Source of the DNA: Candidatus Halobeggiatoa sp. HSG11
GTDB lineage: Bacteria > Pseudomonadota > Gammaproteobacteria > Beggiatoales > Beggiatoaceae
Direction of reading: 5' to 3'
Length of the DNA: 64,000 nt
NCBI GenBank assembly: GCA_030378105.1
Contig: JAUCGL010000006.1
Location: 1 to 64,000 of the forward strand
Part shown: positions 14,139 through 36,108 of the stretch, piece after piece
How the letters are laid out: every line of letters starts with the position of its first letter
Position numbering within the stretch: position 1 is the first letter of the stretch
Notes under the pieces: model-generated
What the model was told of the DNA's origin: nothing
Databases searched by the model: none
What the model saw: the letters and a program-made list of their open reading frames with translations, nothing else
Position numbers and translations under genes: made by a program

Positions 14139-17100
14139 CTAAACACCCCCAAACCTCCCCAACACTTCCTCAACACCAATCCCCAATATCTCCGCAACGG
14201 CAGTGGGCAGTGTGTTGTCGTTGGTGGCTTGGTATAAACGAGCAAAGGCAGGTAAAGAAAAAGTCTCAATACTATGAGAATCATTAAATTCAGAATACAA
14301 ACTTAACGCTTTCAGTAAATATTCCTTTGCCTGTTGCCATTGTTCTTGTTCTTCTGCCACCATGCCAAGAGTGTGACAAGTACTAGCTTGTGAATACTTA
14401 TCGTTGAACTCAATTTTAATCTCCAAAGCCTTTTGATAATACTGTTCGGCGGCTAGCCATTGACGCTGTTTTTGGGCTACTATGCCCAGATTGTGATAAG
14501 TACTAGCTTGTAAATACCTATCTTTGAATTCAATATAAATCTTCAAAGCCTTTTGATAATACTGTTCAGCGGCTGGCCATTGACGCTGTTCTTGGGCCAC
14601 TATACCCAGTTGGTGATAAGTACCAGCTTGTGAATACTTATCATCGAATTCAATATAAATCTCCAAAGTCTTTTGACAATACTGTTCAGCGGCCGGCCAT
14701 TGACGCTGTTCTTGGGCCACTCTGCCCAGTTGGTGATAAGTACCAGCTTGTTCATACCTATCTTTGAACTCAATACAAATCTCCAAAGCCTTTTGATAAT
14801 ACTGTTCAGCGGCTGGCCATTGACGCTGTTCTTGGGCCACCATGCCTAGTTCGTGATAAGTACTAGCTTGTGAATACTTATCGTTTAACTCAATTTTAAT
14901 CTCTAAAGCCTTTTGATAATACTGTTCAGCGGCTGGCCATTGATGCTGTTCTTGGGCCACTATACCCAGTTGGTGATAAGTACCAGCTTGTGAATACTTA
15001 TCGTTTAACTCAATTTTAATCTCCAAAGCCTTTTGATAATACTGTTCAGCGGTCGGCCATTGACGCTGTTCTTGGGCCACCATGCCTAGTTGATGATAAA
15101 GTCCAGCACTTAGGATAGCTTTTTCTTTTTTCTCAAAATTTTTTAGATTTAAATGTATTGACAGAGCCTTCTGATAAGATTGTTCTGCTTGGCTATATTG
15201 CTGGCTTAAAAGTTGTCGTTTAGCAACACTATCCACTACTGTAACAAACTCCGTCCCTAATTGCCCTTGCAACGCTTCAGCCGAGTATTTTTCCAAACGA
15301 GCTAAAACACTTTCACCTTGAATTAATCCCCGTTTATGGTCTTGCGTGGCATCCAAATGAAAAGATAATGCTTTGTAGGGATTTATAATTGACATTTGTG
15401 TTTGCAACGCCAAATCCAATGCCCTATTCAAGTTCTCATACTCAAAAGGCGTAATTATTTGCCCCATTTGTTTCTCTTGAGCTTCTTTAGATTCAAGCAA
15501 ACCTGCCAATCCCTCTCCAATCCAATCATAATATTGCCGAAACGCTATCTCAATCGCTGCTTGATAATCTGGCTGTGACTGCAAACGATTCCGCATAAAA
15601 TAAGGAAAAATCGGCTGTATAGTTAAAAACACTGCTATCTCTGGATGCAGAGCCAACAACCCCCAATTTATCGCCTCTTGCAACACCGCTTCCCATTGAG
15701 CAAACGGCCAATCCGCTAACAACGGTTGCTGTTGTAATTTTTCGGTATACTGTGGCAAATGCTGAATATCAACCACCCCCGTAAACGGAGCCAAACACAA
15801 CAACAACCTCTGAGCATCTTCCGACAAATTCCCATAAGAATAATCAATACACCGCAAAATATTAGTAGTCTTATCCTGATAAATATCCCCACTCTCCTCC
15901 CCAGCATCCAACCCCTCAGAAACACCAGCTTCCAATGCCTCCAAAACCTTTTTCGGAGTCTGCCGCACCAAATTCCCCAACACCACCTGCAAAGCCAACG
16001 GATAACCAGCCAACAACTTCAACAACCTCTGCAAATACTCCCGATGCTCCTCCGCCTCCCGATAATCACTCACCCCATGAGCAGCCAAAATCAAATCCAC
16101 CAACTGCGAAGCCGCCTCATCATCCAAACCAGCCAACCCATAAACATTATTCGCAAACGTACCCGTAGCTAACCACTTCTCATCCCCACGAGAACCCAAC
16201 AACACCAAACTCTCACCACCCACCAAACCATTCAAAAAAGACTGTAACTCCTGCTGCTCATCCTCCGGCAAAGTATGCAAAATCGCCAAATGCGACCCAG
16301 TGATAGACTCCAAATTATCCAAAATCAACAAATGCCGCTCCGAACGCAACCGCTTAACCAGCATCTTTTGCTGTGCCGACTCATTCATAGCTTGAAACGC
16401 CTTATTCTCTGGCAATAATTCCGCAGCCAAAGCCGACAAAATCTGCTGCCGATTCCACGCCTTCACATCATAACCAAAATAAAACACCCGTTCCACAAAA
16501 TGCGTCGTCTGCCACCATGCCCCCAAATGATGCAACAAAGTCGTTTTACCAGTACCACCCATACCACAAATCAACAAAATATTCCGTTGTGATAACAAAC
16601 GGTTCTCCACTTCCAACACATCCAAATCTCGCCCCACAAAACCAAATTGAGTTGACGGAGTTTCATAACGCAATGCCTCATTCTGCCAATATGCCACTTC
16701 CTCCTCAACAGTCAACTCCCGTAACGGTAAATCAACCACCTGCCTCTGATAAACCACCGGCAACAACCAATCTTCCAAGTTAATCTGTTGATTATGATGA
16801 GCAATACGAGTTTTATCATTAAACAAAGCCAAACGTGCCAACCGAAGTGCTGTATTCAACTTAACTTGCTGAAACAAATTTTCATACAAAGTCTGCATAA
16901 AGATTTTGGCTGCCGACACCTTCACAGAATAAGCCATCGCCACCACAGTTTGCACTCCACTTTGCATCAAACGACTACCCAAACTCGTCTCACCAACACT
17001 ACCAACCTGTTTCGCCGACTGACAAGCATTCAACATCACCAACGGAATCCCATGATGAGCTAATAAATTAGATAACTCAGTTGCTTCCAATGGTTCAGCC

Positions 17101-17534
17101 TGTCCTTGCTTATCACCCTGCAAAAACAAAAATGCTTTCAAACCCTCAAACGGCTGCAAATCCTCCCGCCCAAACCTTGCTTGATAAGAAAACTTAAACT
17201 GCTCTACTTTACGACCTGCTTCCAACTTTTCATAATCCAATACCGCACCATGCACATCAAAATGCAACAAATGATAATAACCTTTGCCATATTCATTAGT
17301 CACCTGTTCCAACTGCTTGACCAAAGCCTGATAAGTACCGGGCCGTAAAATATCAATCTTAACCGGCAATTTAGCATTTTGCAGCATTTCCACCAAAGGC
17401 CGTGAAATAGTGCGATAACCCACATCATGCTTACCATCCGGACGTGCAGTCACCAATAACACATTTAACGTTGCCGACTCCTTCCCTTTCGCCATTGGCT
17501 GCGGATGCTGCTCAACAACTGGTTTACGAATCAT
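14139..17534 (-). CDS. CHAT protease-like / NB-ARC STAND ATPase / TPR protein
   Basis: 1131-aa three-part protein. The N-terminal CHAT (caspase-like) domain, about residues 22-265, keeps the dyad: H95 in HFDVHG and C171 in MLNACQS. The NB-ARC-type STAND ATPase, about 295-620, starts with FVGRD and has Walker A GMGGTGKTT (324-332) and Walker B LLILDN (D406). The C-terminus has seven consecutive 40-residue TPRs (about 808-1087; consensus YHQLG.VAQEQRQWPAAEQYYQKALEI split by 1-2 changes per copy). In known CHAT and STAND proteins the repeats sense a trigger, ATP drives oligomerisation and the protease is released. The same role in stress, cell death or phage response here is inference. The gene is visibly more C-rich on the plus strand than its neighbours. 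Start is ATG; a small one-TM protein gene lies downstream. Confidence 0.92.
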   Translation of the reverse strand: MIRKPVVEQHPQPMAKGKESATLNVLLVTARPDGKHDVGYRTISRPLVEMLQNAKLPVKIDILRPGTYQALVKQLEQVTNEYGKGYYHLLHFDVHGAVLDYEKLEAGRKVEQFKFSYQARFGREDLQPFEGLKAFLFLQGDKQGQAEPLEATELSNLLAHHGIPLVMLNACQSAKQVGSVGETSLGSRLMQSGVQTVVAMAYSVKVSAAKIFMQTLYENLFQQVKLNTALRLARLALFNDKTRIAHHNQQINLEDWLLPVVYQRQVVDLPLRELTVEEEVAYWQNEALRYETPSTQFGFVGRDLDVLEVENRLLSQRNILLICGMGGTGKTTLLHHLGAWWQTTHFVERVFYFGYDVKAWNRQQILSALAAELLPENKAFQAMNESAQQKMLVKRLRSERHLLILDNLESITGSHLAILHTLPEDEQQELQSFLNGLVGGESLVLLGSRGDEKWLATGTFANNVYGLAGLDDEAASQLVDLILAAHGVSDYREAEEHREYLQRLLKLLAGYPLALQVVLGNLVRQTPKKVLEALEAGVSEGLDAGEESGDIYQDKTTNILRCIDYSYGNLSEDAQRLLLCLAPFTGVVDIQHLPQYTEKLQQQPLLADWPFAQWEAVLQEAINWGLLALHPEIAVFLTIQPIFPYFMRNRLQSQPDYQAAIEIAFRQYYDWIGEGLAGLLESKEAQEKQMGQIITPFEYENLNRALDLALQTQMSIINPYKALSFHLDATQDHKRGLIQGESVLARLEKYSAEALQGQLGTEFVTVVDSVAKRQLLSQQYSQAEQSYQKALSIHLNLKNFEKKEKAILSAGLYHQLGMVAQEQRQWPTAEQYYQKALEIKIELNDKYSQAGTYHQLGIVAQEQHQWPAAEQYYQKALEIKIELNDKYSQASTYHELGMVAQEQRQWPAAEQYYQKALEICIEFKDRYEQAGTYHQLGRVAQEQRQWPAAEQYCQKTLEIYIEFDDKYSQAGTYHQLGIVAQEQRQWPAAEQYYQKALKIYIEFKDRYLQASTYHNLGIVAQKQRQWLAAEQYYQKALEIKIEFNDKYSQASTCHTLGMVAEEQEQWQQAKEYLLKALSLYSEFNDSHSIETFSLPAFARLYQATNDNTLPTAVAEILGIGVEEVLGRFGGV
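14270..15130 (-). repeat. Seven 120-bp tandem repeats inside the CHAT gene (TPR units)
   Basis: The block repeats every 120 bp with very high nucleotide identity, for example the recurring TTTTGATAATACTGTTCAGC and GGCCATTGACGCTG segments. Each unit encodes one 40-residue TPR. Such identity implies recent expansion or ongoing gene conversion, so copy number is likely to vary between strains and assembly of this stretch may be collapsed. Confidence 0.9.
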
Positions 17535-22642: not shown

Positions 22643-25600
22643 ATGACTACTCCTCAAAATATAAAACCTGCTGAAGACGCTCAATTAGAACAAATTGGAA
22701 TTGTCTCCACAATCGTAGAAGGCCAACAACCTATAACGGTTCGTTCCATTGATGGAACAACAAGAGAACTGGTTGCTGATGAACCTATTTATTTATATGA
22801 CGTTATATTAACTACAGATAATAGTTATATAAAAATCATCTTAGATGACGACACCGTATTTAAACTTGGCCCCAATTCCGAAGCTAGTTTAGACAAATAT
22901 CTTTATGACCCAGATGCTTCCAGTGGAGAATTTGAAGCATTTGTATCAACCGGTTCATTTCATTACATAAGTGGCAAAATAAGTGGCGATAATCAAGGAC
23001 AGCACACTTTAATCAAAACTCCTTCTGCTCAAATAGGTATTCGAGGCAGCGAAATAACCGCAGAAATAGCCGAAGATGGTTCAACCACAATTTTACACAT
23101 GGCAGGATTAGTAACCATTATTTCCAATTACACACAAAGCGAAGTTCTGGTTTATGAACGTGGTACATCAATATACATTCCCAATGAAAATACCAGCCAT
23201 ACCGTAGACCAAATTTCAGAAGAGCAACTTCAAATCCATACTCAAGAATGGCAAATGGATACCTATAACACTCTTGAGATTGAATCAAATACTCCAGAAT
23301 ACATAAATACTTCTACTTCAGAATATAAAACAGATCAACATGATGAGCAACCTGAAATAGAAGAATCAGCAGATAATGATAACAACCAATACTTTCCGGT
23401 TAGAACCGATATTCATGATTTTAATGAACCATTAGACAAACCACCAACAGAAGATGTAGCTATTAACAAAAGTGAATTATTTAAAATTCATAGCGAAATA
23501 AGAGAAGCTGGATTTGAAGAACATGTTAAACATAAAGTTCCATCTGAGCAACACACCAAAATAGCTCTTGGGGATGAAGATGAGATACATGTTCCTGACA
23601 AACCTGAATTTCCTCCAAAAACTCCTGATGAGCCAACAGAACCAACAGAACCAACAGAACCACCTCCTGTTGAAACTATTGCTAGAGATGATGCTTTTGA
23701 TATGGGAAATAACGATACCATAACAATTGCCAAGCAAGATTTATTGAGCAATGATAAATATGCAGAAACTGATTCATTTAGTATTCTTAACACTATCAAT
23801 GGTATAGTTACAATAGATGCAGATAATATTACCTTTACCAGAGATACTCAATTTAGTGGTATTACAGAAAATGGTTTTGATTATAGCATTGGAAAAGAGA
23901 TTGCTCATGTTAGTATAACTGGTAATTTATCCCCAATAGCTGTTACGGATAAAGTAATAACATTAGAGAATCAACCTATAATTTTTAACTTCAATGACTT
24001 ATTAGGTAATGATTTTGATCCTAATCCAACCGACAGTATAAACATAACCGGGATAGATAATCCTTCCAATGGAACAATTCAACTAACAAACAATGCTTTA
24101 ATATTCACTCCAATAAATGCTGGCAATGCAAGTTTTGAATATACCATTACCGATGATCATGGAGCTAATACAATTGGGCTGGTTAAAATTGAAGTGCTTG
24201 AAACATCGAAACCAAAGAATGATACATTTAACACGATAGTCACCGAGCCATTACCAATCACACTTGAATCCTTACTCAGCAATGATAACAATGATAATTT
24301 TACAATTATTGATGCAAAAATTATCGAAAATGGTAGTCTGGAATATGATGGTAATATTATATTTGTCCCAGATAAAGTTGGAACAGCTAAATTTGAATAT
24401 ACTGTCCAAGATAGTGATGGAGTGACTAACACAGCTATAGTTACTATCACCGTAGAAGGTTTTGCAGTTGACGACATATTGGGAACAATTCCTAAAAACC
24501 TAACCACTGGTTTTAATAATTTGTTGAATAATGATACCGGCCCAGAACCAATGACTATAACAGCAGTTGATAATGCTGAAAATGGTACTGTTATTTTATT
24601 AGAAGATAATATCGTGAAATTCACTCCAACTGATAATTTTGTTGGTGAAGCTAGTTTTGAATATACTGTATCTACGTCTGACGGATATATTGATACAGCA
24701 ACAGCAACATTAACGGTAGAAAACTCACCACCAGTTGATAATACACCACCAGAAATTAATTGGAGTACTGAACCACTTACATTTAATGTATCAGAGCAAG
24801 CCAAGCATATAGGAGAAGTCAGCGTTATTGATGATGATTCAATAGACTTTGCCGGCGGTATATTAAAAGCAGCAATTACTCAAAATCGCACAGCTAATGA
24901 TATTTTGAAAATTGAAGATTTTGGGGCAATAAAAGTATCTGGTAATACAAGTGGCAATATCTATCACAATGAAGTTAAAATTGGTGATTTTATTACTGAT
25001 TTTATAAGCGGAACTTTGTTGATTAGTCTTAATGAAGCAGCAAATGCCAATAATACTGGCCCTCTTATCCAAGCCATTACATATCAAAATATATCTCAGG
25101 AACCTGAAGGAGAAAATCGCACATTAACAATATCATTGAGCGATGGCGATAGTTATTCCGAAACAACTGTTAGTAGAGAAATCCAAATAACTACTGAAAA
25201 CATTGCCCCAGTTGCAAATCACGATCCTGATATTGAAGCCCAATTCAACGCTTATACCACGATTCCAGTTATTAATTTATCAGAAAACCCAGTTCCTGAT
25301 TTATTAGGAAATGATATTGACGCTAATCCAACTGATATTATAAGAATTTTAGAAGACTCCATCACTCCAGAAACAGAAAACATAATAAACATAGAGTTGG
25401 TTGGTAATGAAATACAGCTATTTATTGACGCATTAAAAAGTGACGAACCTACCGAATCAGCAAAATTTAGTTATAAAATTACTGATGGACAAGATAGTAG
25501 TGAAAAAGCCACTGTAACGGTCAACCCCAACAATGTTATAAATGTTGATGAACCCACTACTGACGGAGTTGACATAATATTGGGAGGGCAAGGTGGTGAT

Positions 25601-26050
25601 GTCTTTAATCCAAGTGATGGAGCAGATATTTTATTCGGTAAAGGTGGTGACGATACGTTTAACTTAAATTCCAATATTGCTGGACTTCATATAAAGGGCG
25701 GCGAAGGTGATGATAAAATAAGTTTGAATGGAATCGAAAATCATACTTTAAATTTAGTCCAAAACCGTAGTTTGCCTGAGTCTTCACAATTAAAATTAGA
25801 TGGTGTGGATATAATTGATATAACTGGTAAAAATAACCAACTGCATTTACAAATTAAGGATGTGTTGAAAATAACCGATGGAGAAGATAGTGGTAAATTA
25901 ACGATTGATGGTGGGGCTAGTAATATAGTCAATTCTCTTGGACAAGGTTGGAAGCTAAGTCCAAGTAGTATTGATGGTTATAATGTTTATACAAGTGATG
26001 CTGCCCAATTATTGGTTCACGTTGACATTAATAACCAATTTATTTCTTAA
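22643..26050 (+). CDS. Giant FecR / cadherin-like / RTX secreted protein
   Basis: 1135-aa protein without a signal peptide. An N-terminal FecR domain (about 60-170; KLGPNSEASLDKY, LIKTPSAQIGIRGSE) is followed by a linker with an EPT repeat (about 331-341). Four or so tandem cadherin-like/VCBS-type Ig modules follow (about 345-700; recurring LLGND or LLNNDT starts and ASFEYTV ends), then a further beta domain (700-960). An RTX calcium-binding stretch (about 980-1033; GGQGGDVF, GKGGDDTF, GGEGDDKI) precedes a C-terminal beta region. RTX plus no signal peptide points to type I secretion and a surface or extracellular adhesin. The FecR domain at the front is a known companion of such proteins, with unclear role. 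No secretion genes are nearby. Confidence 0.85.
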   Translation: MTTPQNIKPAEDAQLEQIGIVSTIVEGQQPITVRSIDGTTRELVADEPIYLYDVILTTDNSYIKIILDDDTVFKLGPNSEASLDKYLYDPDASSGEFEAFVSTGSFHYISGKISGDNQGQHTLIKTPSAQIGIRGSEITAEIAEDGSTTILHMAGLVTIISNYTQSEVLVYERGTSIYIPNENTSHTVDQISEEQLQIHTQEWQMDTYNTLEIESNTPEYINTSTSEYKTDQHDEQPEIEESADNDNNQYFPVRTDIHDFNEPLDKPPTEDVAINKSELFKIHSEIREAGFEEHVKHKVPSEQHTKIALGDEDEIHVPDKPEFPPKTPDEPTEPTEPTEPPPVETIARDDAFDMGNNDTITIAKQDLLSNDKYAETDSFSILNTINGIVTIDADNITFTRDTQFSGITENGFDYSIGKEIAHVSITGNLSPIAVTDKVITLENQPIIFNFNDLLGNDFDPNPTDSINITGIDNPSNGTIQLTNNALIFTPINAGNASFEYTITDDHGANTIGLVKIEVLETSKPKNDTFNTIVTEPLPITLESLLSNDNNDNFTIIDAKIIENGSLEYDGNIIFVPDKVGTAKFEYTVQDSDGVTNTAIVTITVEGFAVDDILGTIPKNLTTGFNNLLNNDTGPEPMTITAVDNAENGTVILLEDNIVKFTPTDNFVGEASFEYTVSTSDGYIDTATATLTVENSPPVDNTPPEINWSTEPLTFNVSEQAKHIGEVSVIDDDSIDFAGGILKAAITQNRTANDILKIEDFGAIKVSGNTSGNIYHNEVKIGDFITDFISGTLLISLNEAANANNTGPLIQAITYQNISQEPEGENRTLTISLSDGDSYSETTVSREIQITTENIAPVANHDPDIEAQFNAYTTIPVINLSENPVPDLLGNDIDANPTDIIRILEDSITPETENIINIELVGNEIQLFIDALKSDEPTESAKFSYKITDGQDSSEKATVTVNPNNVINVDEPTTDGVDIILGGQGGDVFNPSDGADILFGKGGDDTFNLNSNIAGLHIKGGEGDDKISLNGIENHTLNLVQNRSLPESSQLKLDGVDIIDITGKNNQLHLQIKDVLKITDGEDSGKLTIDGGASNIVNSLGQGWKLSPSSIDGYNVYTSDAAQLLVHVDINNQFIS

Positions 26051-28015: not shown

Positions 28016-28600
28016 TTAAAATGTTTTCAGTTGTTTCTGAATCAATAAATATATCGAAAATATACTCAATATTCCTATTTTCAAAAATATTCTAAGCATC
28101 ATGATAAACCAACCTAAAAAGGTATAAGTATTTTCATGGATAAAATTCTTGCTGGTTCCTTCTATTATAATTTGTATTATTGATTTTTTAATTCTATCAA
28201 TAATGCTACATAGTGATTGCAGCTCTGACTCATCATTATTTTTTTCACAATCATTATTTGTAGAAGAGTTAGTAGGAATTCCCTTGACAATTTTATTAAT
28301 AATATTAGAACATTGTTGTTCCGAATTGTCGTTATTTTTACAATTGTTATTTGAAGAAGGATTAGGATTTGGTTCCTCATTATTATCTTGATTTGAGGGA
28401 GAATTAGAATCCAATTCCTTATTGTTATCCTTGTTTGGAGAAGGGTTAGGCTTTATTTTATTATCATCACTATCTTTGCTCAAATTAGATTCATTAGGTA
28501 TATTTTCTACTATAAGAATATTATCATTATACAGAAAATCCATAGCAAATAATGATGAACAAAAGATTATCATATTTATAATGAAAAATGATTTATACAT
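28016..28600 (-). CDS. Cassette protein C2: exported Asn/Ser-rich one-TM protein
   Basis: 194-aa protein, last gene of the duplicated ATPase operon. It has a signal peptide (about 1-19), then a low-complexity Asn/Ser/Pro/Asp/Glu linker (about 35-105). The linker includes an internally repeated unit with paired cysteines (NNNCKNNDNSEQQCSNII, then NNDCEKNNDESELQSLCSII). A C-terminal membrane helix (about 163-188) and a short Lys-containing tail end the protein. The layout (exported, tethered by a C-terminal helix, flexible linker) matches cassette protein C1 although sequence is barely conserved. RBS TTAGGAAATAAG lies 15 bp after the preceding stop. No catalytic motif; it could be a sensor stalk, ligand or substrate for the membrane ATPase. 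Confidence 0.7.
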   Translation of the reverse strand: MYKSFFIINMIIFCSSLFAMDFLYNDNILIVENIPNESNLSKDSDDNKIKPNPSPNKDNNKELDSNSPSNQDNNEEPNPNPSSNNNCKNNDNSEQQCSNIINKIVKGIPTNSSTNNDCEKNNDESELQSLCSIIDRIKKSIIQIIIEGTSKNFIHENTYTFLGWFIMMLRIFLKIGILSIFSIYLLIQKQLKTF

Positions 28601-28615
28601 TATCTTATTTCCTAA

Positions 28616-30841
28616 TCATTGTACAAACCAACGTCGAATAATTTCAATTTGAAAACGATAGCCAGTTGGTGTTAATTCAATTAATTCACTCTGAATCAAA
28701 TTTTCTAAAGAATTCTCTAGTTCTTGAAATTTCTTAGATAATTTTTCTTTATTAATTATTATTCCTTTTCCTTGAGATGCTATAAATTGCAATATATCCC
28801 TTTCAATACGTGAACGTTCAGCAATATGACTAAAATAATTTCTTCCACTTTTTAAGGCATTAAGTATGGCAATATCAACATCTTCTTTAGTTATCAAATG
28901 TTGCTTATTAACTTCTTGACTATTTTTTAGTAAAATTATTTCTTTGCATAATAATTGTAATAGGGCAGGATGACAATGAGTTAGATATAAAATATATTTG
29001 ATAGCATCTGGCTTATATTCGATTGATGTTGGTTTTTTTATTAACTGTATTGCCTCACTTTCTTTTAAATAACTTAAATAAACAGATTCAGCATTAATAA
29101 AATAGCTATTCCAATCTGGAAATACATCTAGTTGATGTAAACCAGCAAATATAATTTTAAAACGCAAACGATGTTGAATAATATGTCTAAACATACTTAA
29201 TATTGAACGTCTATCTAAATTGCCTCTCTCAAAACTTTCTTCTAGTGTTTCAAATTCATCAAAAGTTATTAATAAAGTATGCTCTTCAATACTGTCTTCA
29301 ACTTTATTCAACCATTCATCAAATACTATAAAAGGATCATCTTGTAATTCTTTACGTTCAAGAACCGGTAATGTTAATTTACCATGTGCAGCTTTAATCA
29401 ATGCATAGCTTAAACTATAAAAAAAACTACTATGATTAGCCGCTAATGAAACTGGACCTTGGAAATCAACAAATAGTGATATATAGTTATTCGGCAATAA
29501 TTCATTAAAAAAGTTAAGTAATGAAGTCTTGCCCATTCTTCGTTGTCCGTACAACAAAATAGGTGGATTACGTTGTTCGCTTAATAAAACTTCTATACGG
29601 GCAATAATATCTTTACGACCAACAAATAATTCCTTATTCAAAGTTGTTAAAGGAACACCAGTTATATAAGGATTAGGAATCTTTTCATCTACAGTACTAA
29701 CTGCAACTTGAAGACTAGCATGATGAATTGCTTGTTTTAGAGTATCAGTGTTTTCTAATTTTTTAAAAAGGTTAGTGAGATTTATTAGTATTTTTTTAAA
29801 CATTTGTTGAAAATTTTTAGTGGATATTATTGGATAGTTTTCTATTATGTTAGGCCACCAACATTGCGATAAACCTAATAGTATTGTAACAATACTTAAT
29901 AAAAATACAGAATTATAAGGATATAGGTACATAAAACAAACAACATATATACCACAACTTCCTAGAAAACCAGATATGATTCCAGTATGTAAATTAAAAA
30001 TTTTTTTTGTTAGTAAATAAGGTAAAGCGAACATTAATGAAAAAATAATTCCATTGAGAAATCCGCCTATAAAAGATTTAAACAAGAGATGTGACGTATG
30101 TATAAAATCAAATAATATTGTAGTTCCAAATATTGCAGTTATTATGCTTGCCAAATACCAATTACGAGTTGACCAGCCAACTAGCAACCATATACCTAAA
30201 AATAAACCAATATACAATATTTTCAAATCATCTAAGGTAATTGGTAATAAGTCAAACACAAAAAAAGATAATATAACAATTAAAGACAATAATGAACAAA
30301 TAATTAATACTACTATTCCAGCTAATAAAAAATTAATTTTTAGATTTGAATGTCTTTTGCCGATAGTTAGTAACACACTGCTGGCAACACTCACAGCAAA
30401 TACTCCTGCTAAAATAGCCATTTTATACCAATTATCACTATCTATATCCATCCAAAACAAACAACCAATTAATAATCCACTTATAACGATAGCAACGTAA
30501 CTAAAAGCAACAGATATAATAATTCCACTAACAAATCCACCTATAAAACTTAATGTTGTTACATAAACCATGCTGCGTAACATATAGTCTTGATAACCAA
30601 ATAGCCATAATGACAACCCAGATATAATCCCAATAAAAATAGGTCCTACAAAATACATAACTCCCAGTAAATGCAATAAAATAGGATGTTGCCATTGTTC
30701 AAAACTTAGTTTGGATAAAGCAAAATCGGGAGATAAATTTGGTTCAATCTGTCCAATTACATTTTTCCAATGTAATGGTTTAAAAATTAACCAAAGAAAG
30801 ATTTGTACAGACGCTAGAAAAGAACTTCTACTTAAATTCAT
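28616..30841 (-). CDS. Cassette protein B2: polytopic membrane protein fused to a P-loop ATPase
   Basis: 741 aa from the ATG that overlaps the preceding gene's TGA (ATGA); a longer TTG frame is not needed. The N-terminal ~340 residues contain about nine or ten hydrophobic helices. The C-terminal ATPase has FVGRKDII, Walker A LLYGQRRMGKTSLL (about 432-445) and Walker B LLITFDEFE (about 528). It also has a sensor-like FKIIFAGLHQLD, a helical lid with HPALLQLLCKEI and a winged-helix-like end (YRFQIEIIRRWFV). This places it among AAA-type STAND-like ATPases. The arrangement, with a membrane domain in front of a STAND ATPase, is unusual. It is closely related over its whole length to B1 upstream in the same operon. 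Function unknown; membrane signalling or conflict-response roles are inference. Confidence 0.82.
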   Translation of the reverse strand: MNLSRSSFLASVQIFLWLIFKPLHWKNVIGQIEPNLSPDFALSKLSFEQWQHPILLHLLGVMYFVGPIFIGIISGLSLWLFGYQDYMLRSMVYVTTLSFIGGFVSGIIISVAFSYVAIVISGLLIGCLFWMDIDSDNWYKMAILAGVFAVSVASSVLLTIGKRHSNLKINFLLAGIVVLIICSLLSLIVILSFFVFDLLPITLDDLKILYIGLFLGIWLLVGWSTRNWYLASIITAIFGTTILFDFIHTSHLLFKSFIGGFLNGIIFSLMFALPYLLTKKIFNLHTGIISGFLGSCGIYVVCFMYLYPYNSVFLLSIVTILLGLSQCWWPNIIENYPIISTKNFQQMFKKILINLTNLFKKLENTDTLKQAIHHASLQVAVSTVDEKIPNPYITGVPLTTLNKELFVGRKDIIARIEVLLSEQRNPPILLYGQRRMGKTSLLNFFNELLPNNYISLFVDFQGPVSLAANHSSFFYSLSYALIKAAHGKLTLPVLERKELQDDPFIVFDEWLNKVEDSIEEHTLLITFDEFETLEESFERGNLDRRSILSMFRHIIQHRLRFKIIFAGLHQLDVFPDWNSYFINAESVYLSYLKESEAIQLIKKPTSIEYKPDAIKYILYLTHCHPALLQLLCKEIILLKNSQEVNKQHLITKEDVDIAILNALKSGRNYFSHIAERSRIERDILQFIASQGKGIIINKEKLSKKFQELENSLENLIQSELIELTPTGYRFQIEIIRRWFVQ

Positions 30842-31770
30842 AGAGATAAACGTTTTATCTGTTTTAAGCCAATTTCTTTCCAATCATCTTTGTAATCAAA
30901 TCTTACCTTACAAAAAATTTGTAATAATGCAGGCCAACGTTGGCCTTTTTCTAATATCCATTCTTTATCAGATTGAGAAAAAGGAACGTAATTTAAGAAT
31001 TCTTGTGCTTCATTTTCTGTCAAAGGTTCTAACTTAATATCCTCATATATGTTGAATGCTGGTGAAGTTTTACCAATTTCTTCTGCCCATTTATTCAAAT
31101 CTTCTATCGGAATATTAGACGTTATACAAAAGCCCAAATTACTATTTTTATTACCAAGATAGCGAATATACTGCCAAAATCTTTTATCTAATTCAGATAT
31201 TTCTAAACCAAATTCAATGTTATCCATTAAGATTATTGTTGGTCTATTTAAACTGTTATTAAGCGTTTCTGTTAAATCATCCAAATCTTTGGTATTACTA
31301 TGCAAATTTAATTCTTTCAATACATAACGTAAAAAACCTTCCAAACTATGTACGGCTATATTTTCAAAATCAACAGACATGAAATTATATTTCTGTTCAA
31401 GCCAATTATTACGTTGTTCCTTCCGTAAATCATTACAATTATGAATTAACCTTAAGTAATTTAATAGTGATGTCTTTCCACTACCTTCAGGTCCAGTTAT
31501 AGCAACATGTTCTAAAGGAAGTTCTTGCCAATTACTAAAAATTCTTTCCAAAATATCTTCACGTCCAAAGAATTGTTTTGGATGAGTGATTGGACCAGTT
31601 ATAGGAATTATTTTGTGTTGGGGTAATTCTTCAATCGTTTTTGAGCTTTTACGTTCTGAACTTTTCAAATGCAGTTTTTTTTCTTGCCGCGTAACTACTA
31701 TTGCAGTTACTATAACAGCAATAATCGTGATTAAACTAACAATAATAGTTGCTATTGTTTCATAACTCAT
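30838..31770 (-). CDS. Cassette protein A2: membrane-anchored small P-loop ATPase
   Basis: 310 aa. An N-terminal membrane helix (about 8-27) and basic linker precede an ATPase domain with HPKQFFGREDIL, Walker A GPEGSGKTS (93-101) and Walker B IILMDN (about 181-186). The C-terminal lid ends in WPALLQIFCK. From PITGPITHPKQFFGRED onward it is very similar to A1, but A1 has a DNA-binding HTH where A2 has the membrane helix. It starts three bases after the stop of the 4-TM protein, and its TGA overlaps the B2 start, so A2 and B2 are translated together. It probably works as a pair with B2 at the membrane. Confidence 0.82.
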   Translation of the reverse strand: MSYETIATIIVSLITIIAVIVTAIVVTRQEKKLHLKSSERKSSKTIEELPQHKIIPITGPITHPKQFFGREDILERIFSNWQELPLEHVAITGPEGSGKTSLLNYLRLIHNCNDLRKEQRNNWLEQKYNFMSVDFENIAVHSLEGFLRYVLKELNLHSNTKDLDDLTETLNNSLNRPTIILMDNIEFGLEISELDKRFWQYIRYLGNKNSNLGFCITSNIPIEDLNKWAEEIGKTSPAFNIYEDIKLEPLTENEAQEFLNYVPFSQSDKEWILEKGQRWPALLQIFCKVRFDYKDDWKEIGLKQIKRLSL

Positions 31771-31773
31771 AAC

Positions 31774-32214
31774 TTAATACTCCGATAATAACGTACAACA
31801 TCCGCCAAAAATAACAGAACATTCAAAAATAAGAATTGATCTATTAACTATTATTGTTTTAGTTTCTAATTGCATATCTGAAAGTGGAATTGCTGAAATA
31901 TCAACAAAATAAGCAGTGGCTAATGTTAAAATCATCACTGTAAACCCACCAATAATGGCTTTTAATATTCTAAGTTTTGAACCCGAAACAAATAGTTCTC
32001 CAATAGCAGCAGTACAGATGGCTGTTGCAATAAGAAGTAACTCTCCACGAGATATTAATTGACTAAAAGAATTTAGTTGTCCTCTTACTTCAAAACTAAG
32101 TGCATTAAATACAATAGGAAGTAATGCCATTAAAACACTAAATAATAGCCAACGTATTGTTTTGTCTGTTCCTTTCTTTAGAGGAGAACTAGGAACATTT
32201 TGATATATTTCCAT
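31774..32214 (-). CDS. 4-TM membrane protein (D) between the two cassettes
   Basis: 146 aa from an ATG preceded by AGGATTAAAAAGT; a longer TTG frame would add 17 unlikely residues. Four hydrophobic helices (about residues 22-42, 55-77, 86-106 and 124-142) with short loops and few charges. No family recognised. It has no copy in the second cassette. It ends three bases before A2. It could be a partner of the membrane ATPases or the leftover of a larger gene caught between the duplicated units. Confidence 0.65.
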   Translation of the reverse strand: MEIYQNVPSSPLKKGTDKTIRWLLFSVLMALLPIVFNALSFEVRGQLNSFSQLISRGELLLIATAICTAAIGELFVSGSKLRILKAIIGGFTVMILTLATAYFVDISAIPLSDMQLETKTIIVNRSILIFECSVIFGGCCTLLSEY

Positions 32215-32312
32215 ACTTTTTAATCCTACTATACAAGTCAAAAACAACTGAAAGAATATTCCCAACGAAAATGTTGGGAATCAGGAAATTCGGACATTAA
32301 CAAATGTTTGCT

Positions 32313-32741
32313 TTAATCATCCATTTTATTGAAAAAATTGGTCAATTTTATAAACCATCTTTTCTTCCAAATTAAAATAATTAGACCAAGAAAAAATACT
32401 AAAAGAACTAAATAAGCTACTGTTTTATAAACGCAAGGAATCTCAATAACCCATAAAATACTACAAGATTTATCTGGAATAACATGCTGAACAATTGTTT
32501 TTCCACTTTGAGGAAATATACCATCACCTGTTTTTTCAGGTTTAGTTTCTTTTTTAGACTTATTATCGTCTTTTTGATTTATAACTTCACTCCCATCATT
32601 AGGAGACATGTTTGTACCATCTTTTACATGTGTACCACCTGCTTTAGTCCCTTTTGTATCTACACTATCATGATTATCAGCAAATACAAGAGGGTTACAA
32701 CATAAAACTACTACAATCACAAGCAATTTCCTACAGAGCAT
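32313..32741 (-). CDS. Cassette protein C1: exported Lys/Asp/Gly-rich one-TM protein
   Basis: 142 aa. Signal peptide (about 1-21, ending VFA), hydrophilic Lys/Asp/Gly/Thr-rich linker (22-85), a short beta-like segment with two cysteines (CSILWVIEIPC, about 93-103) and a C-terminal membrane helix (about 107-126) with a basic cytoplasmic tail (KKRWFIKLTNFF). The strong ribosome-binding site AAGGA overlaps the B1 stop codon. Same position and layout as C2 after B2; the sequence has diverged almost completely, as expected for a fast-evolving surface or sensor component. A short TTCCCAACG palindrome lies downstream (about 32258-32279). Confidence 0.68.
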   Translation of the reverse strand: MLCRKLLVIVVVLCCNPLVFADNHDSVDTKGTKAGGTHVKDGTNMSPNDGSEVINQKDDNKSKKETKPEKTGDGIFPQSGKTIVQHVIPDKSCSILWVIEIPCVYKTVAYLVLLVFFLGLIILIWKKRWFIKLTNFFNKMDD

Positions 32742-32750
32742 ATTTTTTCC

Positions 32751-35072
32751 TTATTTTTTAACAATCCAACGTCTAATCATCTCAATTTGAAAGCGATAAT
32801 CACCAGTTGAAGTTTGTTCGATTAATCCAGATTTTTCTAAATTTATCAAATTCTCTTCTTGCTTACATTGTTCTAATAATGTTTCTTTATTAAGAGTGAT
32901 ATTTTCTGCTAAAACACGCAATGTATTCTGTTCTATTGAAGAACGGTTAACAACATAACTAAAAAAGTTTGTTCCAGTTTTTAAGGCATTAGGTATCGCT
33001 ACATCAACATCACTCTTTTGTACATTATATCGATAATGCAAAGTCTGAGAATTTTTAAGGATTATAATTTCTTTACAAAGTAATTGCAACAAAGCAGGAT
33101 GATGTCTTGTTAAATATAATACATACTCTATGGCTTCTTCTGTATAACTTATTTGTATTGACTTTTCAATTAATTGCCTTGCTTCTTCCTGTTCTAAATA
33201 ACTAAGATATACAGATTCAGCATTGATAAAATAATTATCCCATTCAGAAAATACAGTTAATTGATGTAAACCAGCAAATACAATCTTGAAATATATGCGA
33301 TTTTGAATTATATCTCTAAATATACTTAACACAAAATCCCTATTTATATTTCCTTTCTGAAAACTATCTTCCAAAGCTTCAAACTCATCAAAAACTAAAA
33401 CGATACTATTTTTTATAACAGTTTCAACTTCATCTAACCATTCATCAAATGTTGTAGAAGGATCATCTTGAAAATCTTCACGTTTAACTTTAGGTAAATC
33501 TATTTTTTGGTCACGAGCAGAATTTCCTAAGGCACGTGCTACATTATAAAAAAAATTACCATGATTGGCAGACAAAGCAATTGGCCCTTGAAAACTAATT
33601 CGTAATGATTTGTAATTTTTTGGCAATAATGCCGGTAAAAAATTCAACAATGAAGATTTACCAATTCTTCTTTGTCCATAAAGTAAAATTGGAGGACTTG
33701 GTTGATTTTTTAATAAAAGTTCCAATCTTTTTACAATTTCAATGCGACCTACGAACAAATTTTTATTATATTTTATACTTAGAGGAACACCAGTTATATA
33801 CGGATTATCAATCTTTTGGGCTGGCTCTTCTATTTTAACAATCTGTTCCGCAGAACTATCTATTTTAACAATATCTTTATCAGAAGTATTAGTAGTAATT
33901 GCAAGTTCTAAACTAATTCCATGAAACCATTGTTTTAGTTCTTTAACATTTTGCTTAAGATTATTTTTTTCTAACATAATAAATAAATAAGTAATTTTAT
34001 TAAATTGTTTTTTTATAGAATTTATGGATATGGTATAAAACCACCATTGGTGAGAAAGTCCTAAAAACATCGCTGTAATGCTTAGTGGAATAATTGATAG
34101 ATCGGAACTTGAAGCTATAAAAAAATATACGTACATACCACAACTTCCTAATAAACCAGCTATTATTCCTACTTGTACGTTAAAAATATATTTTGCTAAT
34201 AAATAAGGTAATGCAAAAGCCAAAGAAAATACAAAGCTATTAAATACACTGCCTATCACCGGATTCCATAATGGATTCCTTTCATCTGGAACACTGAACA
34301 ATATTGCTATTACAATTCCAGATACAACAGAAATTGTCCCAGAAAAAGACCAGCTACGAGTCGCCCAGAAAAAAATTAGCCAAATGCCAAAAGTAATACC
34401 AATTAATTGAGATTGCCATTTTTTATCAAAATAATCTTCAAATAAAAAATAAGAACTAGCTGCGGATAAGTATATTATAAGGCCAACTATAGAAGCAGCT
34501 AAAATTGCTATAAGAGATAGAAAGATACTAGTTTTTGAACTTAATTTATTTTTATCTGTATTTAATTTAAGTAATATGCTACTAGCAATACTAACGGAGA
34601 AAATAGCAACTAAAATAGCAGATTTATACCATAACAAATCTTCAGCTATTAAAAAAGTTGTTCCGATTAAAAGTCCGCCTATAGTGATAATGATATAGCT
34701 AAATGCAACAGAAATAGTGATACCACTAACAATGCCACCTAAAATTCCTAAAACTATTACATAAATCATTCCTCGCACAAGAGTATTATTATAATTGATT
34801 TCATAATGTAAAGCTAGATTGAACCCGGATAAAAATAACACTACTATTGTTCCAATAAATAGTGGAGCAAATACATATATTAATCTCAATAAATATAATA
34901 GAGTAGGGTTTTTCCAATGTTTGGAGTTTAAATTAGACAAAGCAAAATCTTGAACTAATATAGAGTCAATTTTACTTACCATTTCTTTCCAAATATCCGG
35001 ATAAAATAGTAACCACATAAATAACTGTATATTAGCTAATAAAGGATTTTTACTTAAGCTTGTATTCAACAT
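32751..35072 (-). CDS. Cassette protein B1: polytopic membrane protein fused to a P-loop ATPase
   Basis: 773 aa from the ATG one base after the A1 stop; a TTG three codons earlier is less likely. The N-terminal ~350 residues carry about nine or ten membrane helices with family-specific segments such as SGITISVAFSYI and SLAFALPYLLAKYIF. The C-terminal ATPase has FVGRIEIV, Walker A LLYGQRRIGKSSLL (about 463-476), Walker B VLVFDEFE (D about 562), FAGLHQLT, HPALLQLLCKEI and the ending YRFQIEMIRRWIV. It is a full-length paralogue of B2, with a longer linker (about 385-425) rich in Asp, Glu and Lys before the ATPase. Second gene of the operon. Function unknown. Confidence 0.82.
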   Translation of the reverse strand: MLNTSLSKNPLLANIQLFMWLLFYPDIWKEMVSKIDSILVQDFALSNLNSKHWKNPTLLYLLRLIYVFAPLFIGTIVVLFLSGFNLALHYEINYNNTLVRGMIYVIVLGILGGIVSGITISVAFSYIIITIGGLLIGTTFLIAEDLLWYKSAILVAIFSVSIASSILLKLNTDKNKLSSKTSIFLSLIAILAASIVGLIIYLSAASSYFLFEDYFDKKWQSQLIGITFGIWLIFFWATRSWSFSGTISVVSGIVIAILFSVPDERNPLWNPVIGSVFNSFVFSLAFALPYLLAKYIFNVQVGIIAGLLGSCGMYVYFFIASSSDLSIIPLSITAMFLGLSHQWWFYTISINSIKKQFNKITYLFIMLEKNNLKQNVKELKQWFHGISLELAITTNTSDKDIVKIDSSAEQIVKIEEPAQKIDNPYITGVPLSIKYNKNLFVGRIEIVKRLELLLKNQPSPPILLYGQRRIGKSSLLNFLPALLPKNYKSLRISFQGPIALSANHGNFFYNVARALGNSARDQKIDLPKVKREDFQDDPSTTFDEWLDEVETVIKNSIVLVFDEFEALEDSFQKGNINRDFVLSIFRDIIQNRIYFKIVFAGLHQLTVFSEWDNYFINAESVYLSYLEQEEARQLIEKSIQISYTEEAIEYVLYLTRHHPALLQLLCKEIIILKNSQTLHYRYNVQKSDVDVAIPNALKTGTNFFSYVVNRSSIEQNTLRVLAENITLNKETLLEQCKQEENLINLEKSGLIEQTSTGDYRFQIEMIRRWIVKK

Positions 35073-35073
35073 A

Positions 35074-36108
35074 TTATTCAATATTCAGATAAGATTTTAT
35101 TCTTTCTAATCCGAATTCTTTCCAATTTTCATTATATTCTAATTTTGCCTTACAGAGAATTTGTAATGCTACTGGCCAACATCGACTTTCCTTCAATATC
35201 CATTCCAATTCTTCTTTAGAAAGAGGAACATTATTTAAAAGTTCTTTAGCTTCATTGTCCGTAAAAGTATCTAATTTTATTTCATTAAATATATTATCTG
35301 CTGGAGAAACTTTACCAATATCTTTAGTCCATCGATTCAAATCGATAAGTGGTAGACTAGAAGTTATACAAAATCCTAAGTTGGAATTGTTGTCACCAAG
35401 ATAACGTATGTACTGCCAAAATCTTCTATCTAATTCAGATATTTCTAAGCCTGATTTAATATTATCCATTAAAATTATTGTTGGCTCATTCAAATTATAG
35501 CTCAATATTCCAGTTAAATCATTCAAATCTTTGGTATCATTTGGCAAATTTAATTCCATAAGTACATGGCGTAAAAAACCTTCTAAACTTTGTACAGCTA
35601 TATTCTCAAAATCTACCAACACCCAATTATATTCCTGTTTTAACCAATTACAACGCTGTCCATCACGTAAATCACTGCAACTATGAATTGATTTCAAATA
35701 ATTCAATAACGATGTCTTGCCACTGCCTTCTGGTCCAATTATCGCAACATGTTCTAAAGGAAGCTGTTGCCAATTATTAAAAATCCTTTCCAAAACATCT
35801 TCTCGCCCAAAAAATTGTTTTGGATGCGTTATCGATCCAGTTATAGGAACAATTTTCTGTTGGAATTCAGGTAGCTGTTCAATTCCTGCTGCTTTAAAAA
35901 ACTCTTTACTCTCCTGCTCTGTCAAACGTAGTATCTTTACACATTTTCGTACTTTATCATGACTTTGAAAACCAGGTATAGTACCATTTTTCCAATTACC
36001 AATTGTTGCCCTTGTAACATCTATTTCACAAGCTAAAGCAGCATTAGGAATACGAATACGTCCCATATATTTAAATAATAAATCTTTAAAGTCATTATTA
36101 TTGTGCAT
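35074..36108 (-). CDS. Cassette protein A1: HTH DNA-binding small P-loop ATPase
   Basis: 344 aa. An N-terminal XRE-like helix-turn-helix (about 8-75; ACEIDVTRATIGNWKNG, then a LRLTEQESKEFFKAAGI tail) is fused to an ATPase with HPKQFFGRED, Walker A GPEGSGKTS (125-133) and Walker B IILMDN (D215). A C-terminal lid (WPVALQILCK) follows. HTH heads of this type are common on STAND ATPases in filamentous bacteria. It is first in the operon, so it may sense, regulate the operon's own promoter, or both. The domain after residue 88 is a close paralogue of A2. RBS is weak (TAGGTAAAAAAT). Confidence 0.83.
   Translation of the reverse strand: MHNNNDFKDLLFKYMGRIRIPNAALACEIDVTRATIGNWKNGTIPGFQSHDKVRKCVKILRLTEQESKEFFKAAGIEQLPEFQQKIVPITGSITHPKQFFGREDVLERIFNNWQQLPLEHVAIIGPEGSGKTSLLNYLKSIHSCSDLRDGQRCNWLKQEYNWVLVDFENIAVQSLEGFLRHVLMELNLPNDTKDLNDLTGILSYNLNEPTIILMDNIKSGLEISELDRRFWQYIRYLGDNNSNLGFCITSSLPLIDLNRWTKDIGKVSPADNIFNEIKLDTFTDNEAKELLNNVPLSKEELEWILKESRCWPVALQILCKAKLEYNENWKEFGLERIKSYLNIE

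What the first reader, a model, noticed from the sequence alone, without database searches (positions are those of the whole stretch)
28016..36108. Duplicated A-B-C membrane ATPase cassette: candidate undescribed system
Seven minus-strand genes form one packed operon: A1 (HTH-ATPase), B1 (polytopic TM plus ATPase), C1 (exported one-TM), D (4-TM), A2 (TM-anchored ATPase), B2 (polytopic TM plus ATPase), C2 (exported one-TM). Seen: A1/A2 and B1/B2 are full-length paralogues from the ATPase core outward; all ATPases keep Walker A and B; junctions are +1, +3 and ATGA or SD-over-stop; C1 and C2 share layout but hardly sequence. P-loop ATPases of the STAND/AAA type paired with membrane proteins are usual in signalling and immunity. 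A two-ATPase unit repeated in tandem, with a membrane channel-like half fused to one ATPase and a variable exported protein, is not a system I can name. Role (envelope stress, phage defence, surface polymer or conflict) is inference.
Basis: partly seen in the sequence, partly recalled or inferred. Interest (0 to 1): 0.85.

Follow-up and report, generated by a model that had tools for sequence, protein, structure and literature searches.

The report
Paired membrane ATPases of filamentous bacteria
These genes are extra, fast-changing copies of an unnamed two-gene machine (a soluble ATPase plus a membrane-embedded ATPase) that nearly every giant sulfur bacterium carries and that also occurs in some large-genome cyanobacteria and Chloroflexi; it is probably a membrane-bound molecular switch for surveillance or signalling, but this is untested.

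Summary
The seven genes and the A1/A2 and B1/B2 duplication are real. The A-B-C cassette is not the unit of conservation: the pair A-B is. A (ATPase, usually with an N-terminal HTH) and B (about 10 TM helices plus an AAA+/STAND-like ATPase) form a two-gene module present in 34 to 35 of 37 sampled Beggiatoaceae genomes, absent from 21 other families of the class. It recurs in Cyanobacteria (10/194 genomes) and Anaerolineae (5/150), with A just upstream of B. In those two phyla 11/15 B-positive and 0/14 B-negative genomes carry A, and linked A and B trees agree. No Pfam, NCBIfam or PADLOC model names it beyond generic P-loop families. C1 exists only in one congener, C2 nowhere else seen; D is an unrelated four-TM family. 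Conserved partners elsewhere are a divergent exported protein (F) in Beggiatoaceae and small membrane proteins in cyanobacteria. A's N-terminus is exchangeable (HTH, TM, none, once TIR). Both window A proteins lost the Walker B glutamate, as did 27/34 accessory A; all 110 B keep it. Best reading: a heteromeric membrane-anchored ATPase switch, canonical once per genome, whose accessory copies diversify in envelope or conflict settings. Function is inferred; no defence link is shown.

The parts
35074..36108 (-). A1: five-helix XRE-like HTH (residues 7-73) + AAA+/STAND-like ATPase core (about 88-340); Walker A GPEGSGKTS, Walker B LMDN (catalytic Glu replaced), candidate Arg finger R235, WP..LQ..C sensor motif
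   Evidence: (AF2 pLDDT 91.9)
32751..35081 (-). B1: about 10 TM helices (residues 59-350; N and C termini predicted cytoplasmic) + ATPase with winged helix (428-775); Walker A GQRRIGKS, Walker B DE, candidate Arg finger R589. Likely ATG start at 35072
   Evidence: (AF2 pLDDT 86.3, pTM 0.51)
32313..32741 (-). C1: exported, C-terminal one-TM protein; homologue only in congener G002 (weak constraint, dN/dS about 0.7)
32258..32281 (-). 9-bp hairpin in the C1-D gap, terminator-like
   Evidence: 5 terminator-like sites found in the region against 2.3 expected, so weak
31774..32265 (-). D: four-TM protein, likely ATG start at 32214; family found in 6 of 43 Beggiatoaceae genomes, elsewhere unlinked to A-B
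30838..31770 (-). A2: TM anchor (residues about 5-27) in place of the HTH + ATPase core; Walker B LMDN
28616..30883 (-). B2: paralogue of B1, TM domain + ATPase; likely ATG start at 30841 overlapping the A2 stop (ATGA)
28016..28600 (-). C2: exported, Asn/Pro/Lys-rich, C-terminal TM; no homologue found

Best explanation
A1-B1 and A2-B2 are accessory paralogues of a conserved two-gene module, A-B. B is anchored in the inner membrane by about ten TM helices with its ATPase in the cytoplasm; A is a homologous ATPase encoded just upstream. The two are proposed to co-assemble through shared AAA+/STAND cores, each with a conserved candidate arginine finger, into a mixed ring or cluster on the membrane, in which B hydrolyses ATP and A acts as a nucleotide-bound switch subunit (in most accessory copies, including both in the window, A has lost the catalytic Glu). 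Nucleotide-driven assembly would position A's exchangeable N-terminal domain (XRE-like HTH, TIR, or a TM segment) and change the membrane half or the transcription of neighbouring envelope genes. The canonical copy is kept nearly once per genome in Beggiatoaceae beside a divergent exported protein F; accessory copies diversify, some next to F, exported CHAT-TPR proteins and two-partner-secretion exoproteins. Shown: module, linkage, conservation, predicted folds, motif states. Inferred: co-assembly, ATP cycle, output.
For: Near-universal in the family: B in 35 and A in 34 of 37 Beggiatoaceae genomes, 0 of 21 other-family genomes. Cross-phylum linkage: A directly upstream of B on the same strand in 37/40 cyanobacterial and 5/5 Chloroflexi loci with enough flank; A in 11/15 B-positive and 0/14 B-negative genomes (Fisher p 5e-5). 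A and B patristic distances correlate across 45 linked pairs (rho 0.93; accessory only 0.70; permutation p at most 0.002). A and B cores recognise each other by profile. Arg R235 in 98/98 A, R589 in 109/110 B; Walker B DE in 110/110 B; A: DE in all canonical, cyanobacterial and Chloroflexi rows, lost in 27/34 accessory rows, and in tandem A-A-B loci of two genera one A keeps it and one has lost it. N-terminal exchange HTH/TM/none; TIR, overlapping B by 4 nt, in L182. F beside A across the family and L073 gene order TPS-A-B-F-CHAT on one strand. CyanoTRADDas_TM-like gene divergently next to A in 11 cyanobacterial loci (Pfam match made on one member, others by phmmer). Fold matches: Cdc6/Orc, archaeal ATPase_2, MuB, NRC4 resistosome for A; Orc2, MalT complex, RuvB, Avs3, NLRP for B.
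Against: No complex was modelled and no biochemistry exists. Several canonical A lack any HTH yet keep F beside them, so DNA binding cannot be essential there. A and B are unlinked in some genera. No recognisable sensor domain (TPR, WD40) on either protein. The window copies have neither F, CHAT nor TPS in the operon, so their context link is by paralogy only. The TIR fusion is one locus of a fragmented MAG.
Confidence: 0.45

Rival explanations
1. Anti-phage or suicide module: STAND-like sensing by A-B leads to membrane permeabilisation by the TM half of B (or TIR activity where present).
For: STAND-like folds including Avs3 and NLRP hits; one TIR-A fusion matching ThsB; fast diversification of accessory copies (median ATPase identity 39% against 75% for canonical copies); occurrence in lineages of multicellular habit where such systems concentrate (PMC7159879); strong Septu PtuA/PtuB matches beside one accessory copy.
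Against: Nearly fixed, slowly evolving canonical copy in the whole family, unlike patchy defence genes; neighbours of accessory loci are mostly housekeeping; no PADLOC model matches A or B beyond weak generic ATPases, the TIR fusion apart; nothing found in viral contigs (a narrow pattern scan).
Confidence: 0.2
2. Membrane-tethered transcription regulator: HTH-A is held or released by B, controlling the divergent promoter shared with F (or with the small membrane protein in cyanobacteria).
For: XRE-like HTH in most A; divergent gene arrangement conserved in Beggiatoaceae and, with different partner genes, in cyanobacteria; precedent MalT, a STAND regulator inhibited by partners (hit 8bob).
Against: Canonical A lacking the HTH in several genera still sits beside F; HTH replaced by TM in A2; TIR fusion points to a non-DNA output.
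Confidence: 0.2
3. Energised export or assembly machine for a surface protein or polymer (F, TPS exoproteins, CHAT proteins).
For: Polytopic membrane half plus ATPase; exported genes nearby; A-A-B loci of G000 and G014 lie beside a large multi-TM permease-like gene and an ABC ATPase.
Against: Core folds are initiator/STAND-like, not ABC, SecA or type II/IV secretion ATPases; exported neighbours carry ordinary signal peptides.
Confidence: 0.1
4. The window copies are decaying duplicates of the canonical pair with little function.
For: Loss of catalytic Glu in A1 and A2; shortened B (about 760 aa against 950).
Against: Purifying selection against G002 (A1 dN/dS 0.26, B1 0.21), intact frames, intact B motifs; the Glu loss is shared by 27 accessory A proteins across many genera, so it is old and maintained.
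Confidence: 0.05

Closest known systems
nSTAND2 two-gene operon (predicted counter-invader system, PMC8195603)
   Same: Two adjacent genes each with a STAND-type NTPase, one catalytically eroded, conserved Arg in both, hetero-ring proposed
   Different: No GT4 or HEPN effector; here a polytopic membrane half on one subunit; canonical copies have both subunits intact; no match to DAP3 or RNA12 type families seen
MalT and other STAND regulators with HTH
   Same: STAND/AAA+ ATPase coupled to HTH; a MalT complex is a fold hit of B
   Different: HTH is N-terminal XRE-like, no TPR sensor, and a dedicated membrane ATPase partner is encoded beside it
Avs / bacterial NACHT anti-phage ATPases
   Same: STAND-like core; Avs3 among fold hits; TIR as one N-terminal variant
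   Different: No C-terminal sensor repeats, two-gene membrane architecture, near-universal in one family
Archaeal ATPase_2 / Cdc6-Orc1 clade of AAA+
   Same: Among the best sequence and fold matches, winged helix after the ATPase in B
   Different: Membrane domain, paired subunits, no replication context
EACC1/TRADD-N membrane-associated conflict systems (PMC7159879, PMC8195603)
   Same: Same kind of hosts; CyanoTRADDas_TM-like genes beside A in cyanobacteria
   Different: No caspase constant component in the A-B operon; association by neighbourhood only

Membership tests
nSTAND2 two-gene system | Two adjacent genes, both with STAND NTPase cores and conserved Arg finger | tested here: met
   (Arg 98/98 in A, 109/110 in B; its role as a finger is inferred)
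nSTAND2 two-gene system | One subunit with eroded NTP-binding motifs, fused to GT4 or HEPN effector | tested here: not met
   Walker A kept in A; only the Walker B Glu is lost and only in accessory copies; Pfam finds no GT4 or HEPN on the copies scanned
nSTAND1 (PF20703) | Pfam gathering score | tested here: inconclusive
   above cut-off for A2, L134 B and L182 B, below for A1 and L147 B, no listed match for B1, B2 or L102; partial profile coverage
KAP NTPases | TM helices inserted inside the P-loop domain | tested here: not met
   B's TM helices all precede an intact ATPase
Avs/bNACHT defence ATPases | C-terminal sensor repeats or a PADLOC model match | tested here: not met
Avs/bNACHT defence ATPases | Protection against phage | not testable with these tools
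   needs plaque assays
MoxR-vWA ternary systems | MoxR ATPase with vWA protein | tested here: not met
   no vWA domain found in A or B or listed among neighbours (one search lists only the 25 commonest families)
HTH-STAND transcription regulators | HTH present and bound to DNA | tested here: inconclusive
   HTH fold predicted in A1, absent in A2 and several canonical A; binding not testable

The most novel reading that the evidence does not exclude
A-B is an unrecognised membrane-anchored, two-subunit NLR-like switch shared by filamentous bacteria of three phyla: one subunit is a membrane ATPase, the other carries an interchangeable output domain (HTH, TIR, TM) and repeatedly turns into a non-hydrolysing regulatory subunit after duplication. 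It would be a core, nearly fixed part of giant sulfur bacterial biology as well as a diversifying conflict module.
Probability: 0.35. Interest if true: 0.8.

Novelty: new variant of a known kind. Interest (0 to 1): 0.58.

Why it matters
Giant sulfur bacteria are largely uncultured and genetically dark. A gene pair that nearly every member keeps, that other families of its class lack, and that recurs in filamentous cyanobacteria and Chloroflexi is a tractable entry into what these lineages share. The HTH/TIR/TM swap on one subunit and the widespread loss of its catalytic residue in accessory copies give directly testable predictions about a heteromeric STAND-type switch, and some cyanobacterial copies lie in genera with genetic tools.

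Tried and rejected
A-B-C as the conserved unit: rejected, C1 only in G002, C2 nowhere, no C-like protein after other B genes. D as a component: rejected, its relatives lie away from A-B. Recent A1/A2 gene conversion: rejected, dS about 0.85 to 1.0 for all three comparisons (the A1-A2 and A2-G002 values printed are out of frame and void). Second unit in G002 lost to a contig end: C1 ends 389 nt from the contig end, but D is absent from the whole G002 assembly and no second A or B of this clade was found there. Viral origin: one viral-contig scan found no relative, but its patterns were few. Defence islands: accessory neighbours show one Septu pair, a few CHAT, caspase and TPS genes, otherwise mostly housekeeping. 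A published description of the pair: not found in searches (open-licence papers only).
Full report
What is there. The seven minus-strand genes exist as described. A1 is a five-helix XRE-like HTH joined to a P-loop ATPase; the model is confident (pLDDT 91.9). B1 is a polytopic membrane domain of about ten helices followed by an ATPase with a winged helix (pLDDT 86.3 but pTM 0.51, so the domain arrangement is unsure); charge counts put both ends on the same side. A2 and B2 are paralogues, with A2's HTH replaced by a TM anchor. Against the congener G002, which has a single A-B-C unit 73% identical in B, A1 and B1 are under purifying selection (dN/dS 0.26 and 0.21). In both trees window copy 1 is sister to G002 and copy 2 branches outside (100 support in B, only 83 in A), so the duplication probably predates the split of the two species.

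Corrections to the observation. Both window A proteins read D-N in Walker B where canonical A reads D-E. The D gene probably starts at 32214, leaving 98 nt and a hairpin after C1; the cassette may be two transcription units. C1 has one known homologue, C2 none, and D belongs to a four-TM family that in other Beggiatoaceae lies away from A-B.

The real unit is A-B. In 37 Beggiatoaceae genomes sampled, B was found in 35 and A in 34; in 21 genomes of other families of the class, neither. The family name is inferred from the named records that coincide with these genomes (Thiomargarita, Thioploca, Beggiatoa). A wider class sample of 369 gave members of the same family and one weak ATPase-only hit; a phylum sample of 398 gave three further partial relatives. 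A GTDB contig scan returned 80 best relatives, all from Beggiatoaceae, Cyanobacteria (mostly filamentous genera) and Chloroflexota. Evenly drawn samples put B in 10 of 194 Cyanobacteriia genomes (all 5.1 Mb or larger) and 5 of 150 Anaerolineae. The filamentous association rests on the names of the top 80 hits and was not tested statistically. A lies directly upstream of B in 37/40 cyanobacterial and 5/5 Chloroflexi loci with enough flank (loci chosen by B, some near-identical). The control against that choice is: A in 11/15 B-positive and 0/14 B-negative genomes. Those genomes are not phylogenetically independent, and the B-negative set was picked by hand from the printed list. A and B trees agree. 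In Beggiatoaceae only 38 of 69 B loci have A adjacent; in genus g1 the canonical A and B are on different contigs.

Canonical and accessory copies. One slowly evolving B per genome forms a clade (18 rows, median ATPase identity 75%); accessory B are diverse (median 39%). All 110 B keep Walker B D-E. A keeps it in all 15 canonical, 36 cyanobacterial and 6 Chloroflexi rows, and has lost it in 27 of 34 accessory rows. In two genera with tandem A-A-B (L077, L079), one A keeps the Glu and the other has D-N. This is what one expects if A and B work together and A can become a non-hydrolysing subunit. An invariant Arg in A (R235) and a near-invariant one in B (R589) sit where an arginine finger could lie; the assignment comes from alignment, not from a complex.

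Context. In Beggiatoaceae an exported protein of about 240 aa, F, is encoded divergently beside canonical A in many genera, and stays with A when B is unlinked. F has no Pfam match. F homologues also lie by accessory pairs: in L073 the order TPS exoprotein, A, B, F, exported CHAT-TPR runs on one strand with overlaps or gaps of a few bases from A onward. In many cyanobacterial loci, A is flanked divergently by one of two small membrane proteins; one was matched to CyanoTRADDas_TM at E 6e-20, and ten similar ones follow by phmmer. In L182 the N-terminus of A is a TIR domain close to Thoeris ThsB, and the gene overlaps B by 4 nt. In Nostoc a PIN-domain gene and a small upstream partner, resembling a toxin-antitoxin pair, lie between A and B.

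What it resembles. Sequence libraries give only generic P-loop families; NCBIfam and PADLOC name neither A nor B. Folds point to archaeal ATPase_2, Cdc6/Orc, MuB and plant NRC4 for A, and Orc2, a MalT complex, RuvB, Avs3 and NLRP proteins for B (TM-scores are modest). The closest published idea found is the nSTAND2 two-gene operon (PMC8195603), which shares the paired STAND cores but differs in membrane architecture, effectors and motif erosion. The surrounding literature on conflict systems of multicellular bacteria (PMC7159879) makes a conflict role plausible but does not describe this pair in the passages read.

Mechanism and confidence. Shown: the module, its distribution, linkage, co-divergence, motif states, N-terminal exchange. 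Inferred from family knowledge: nucleotide-dependent assembly and membrane anchoring. Speculative: output through HTH, TIR or the membrane half, and the trigger. Regulation of envelope genes and anti-phage function remain open rivals; nothing here shows defence. Novelty is rated as a new variant of a known kind: STAND/AAA+ switches are known; a two-subunit membrane form nearly fixed in Beggiatoaceae and sparse in two other phyla is not named in the libraries or papers searched.

Noticed in passing
window 14139-17534 (-): 1131-aa protein with CHAT, NB-ARC/NACHT-like ATPase and TPR repeats: an NLR-like architecture 10 kb from the cassette.
   Followed up: no
window 22643-26050 (+): 1135-aa FecR domain plus bacterial Ig/cadherin repeats, adhesin-like.
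   Followed up: no
L028 3346-7516 and L079 3299-7430: Accessory A-A-B loci of two genera lie tail to tail with an 1115-aa multi-TM protein and an ABC ATPase gene; the L028 protein matches DctM (TRAP transporter) and weakly FtsX.
   Followed up: partly
L182 270-3754: TIR-ATPase fusion replacing the HTH of A, overlapping B by 4 nt, in a Synechococcales MAG.
   Followed up: partly
L070 9605-11570: Septu-like PtuA/PtuB pair next to an accessory B, with CHAT, F and A beyond it (one search reports one strong PtuA and one strong PtuB match among the neighbours scanned; the location is inferred from gene order and size).
   Followed up: no
L134 8252-8895 and other Nostoc loci: PIN-domain gene with a small upstream partner, toxin-antitoxin-like, inserted between A and B.
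   Followed up: no
L222 9234-9994, L224 7907-8578, L223 9422-10049: Relatives of D are followed by small one-TM proteins with no confident Pfam family; A2's TM anchor after D might derive from such a partner (inference).
   Followed up: no
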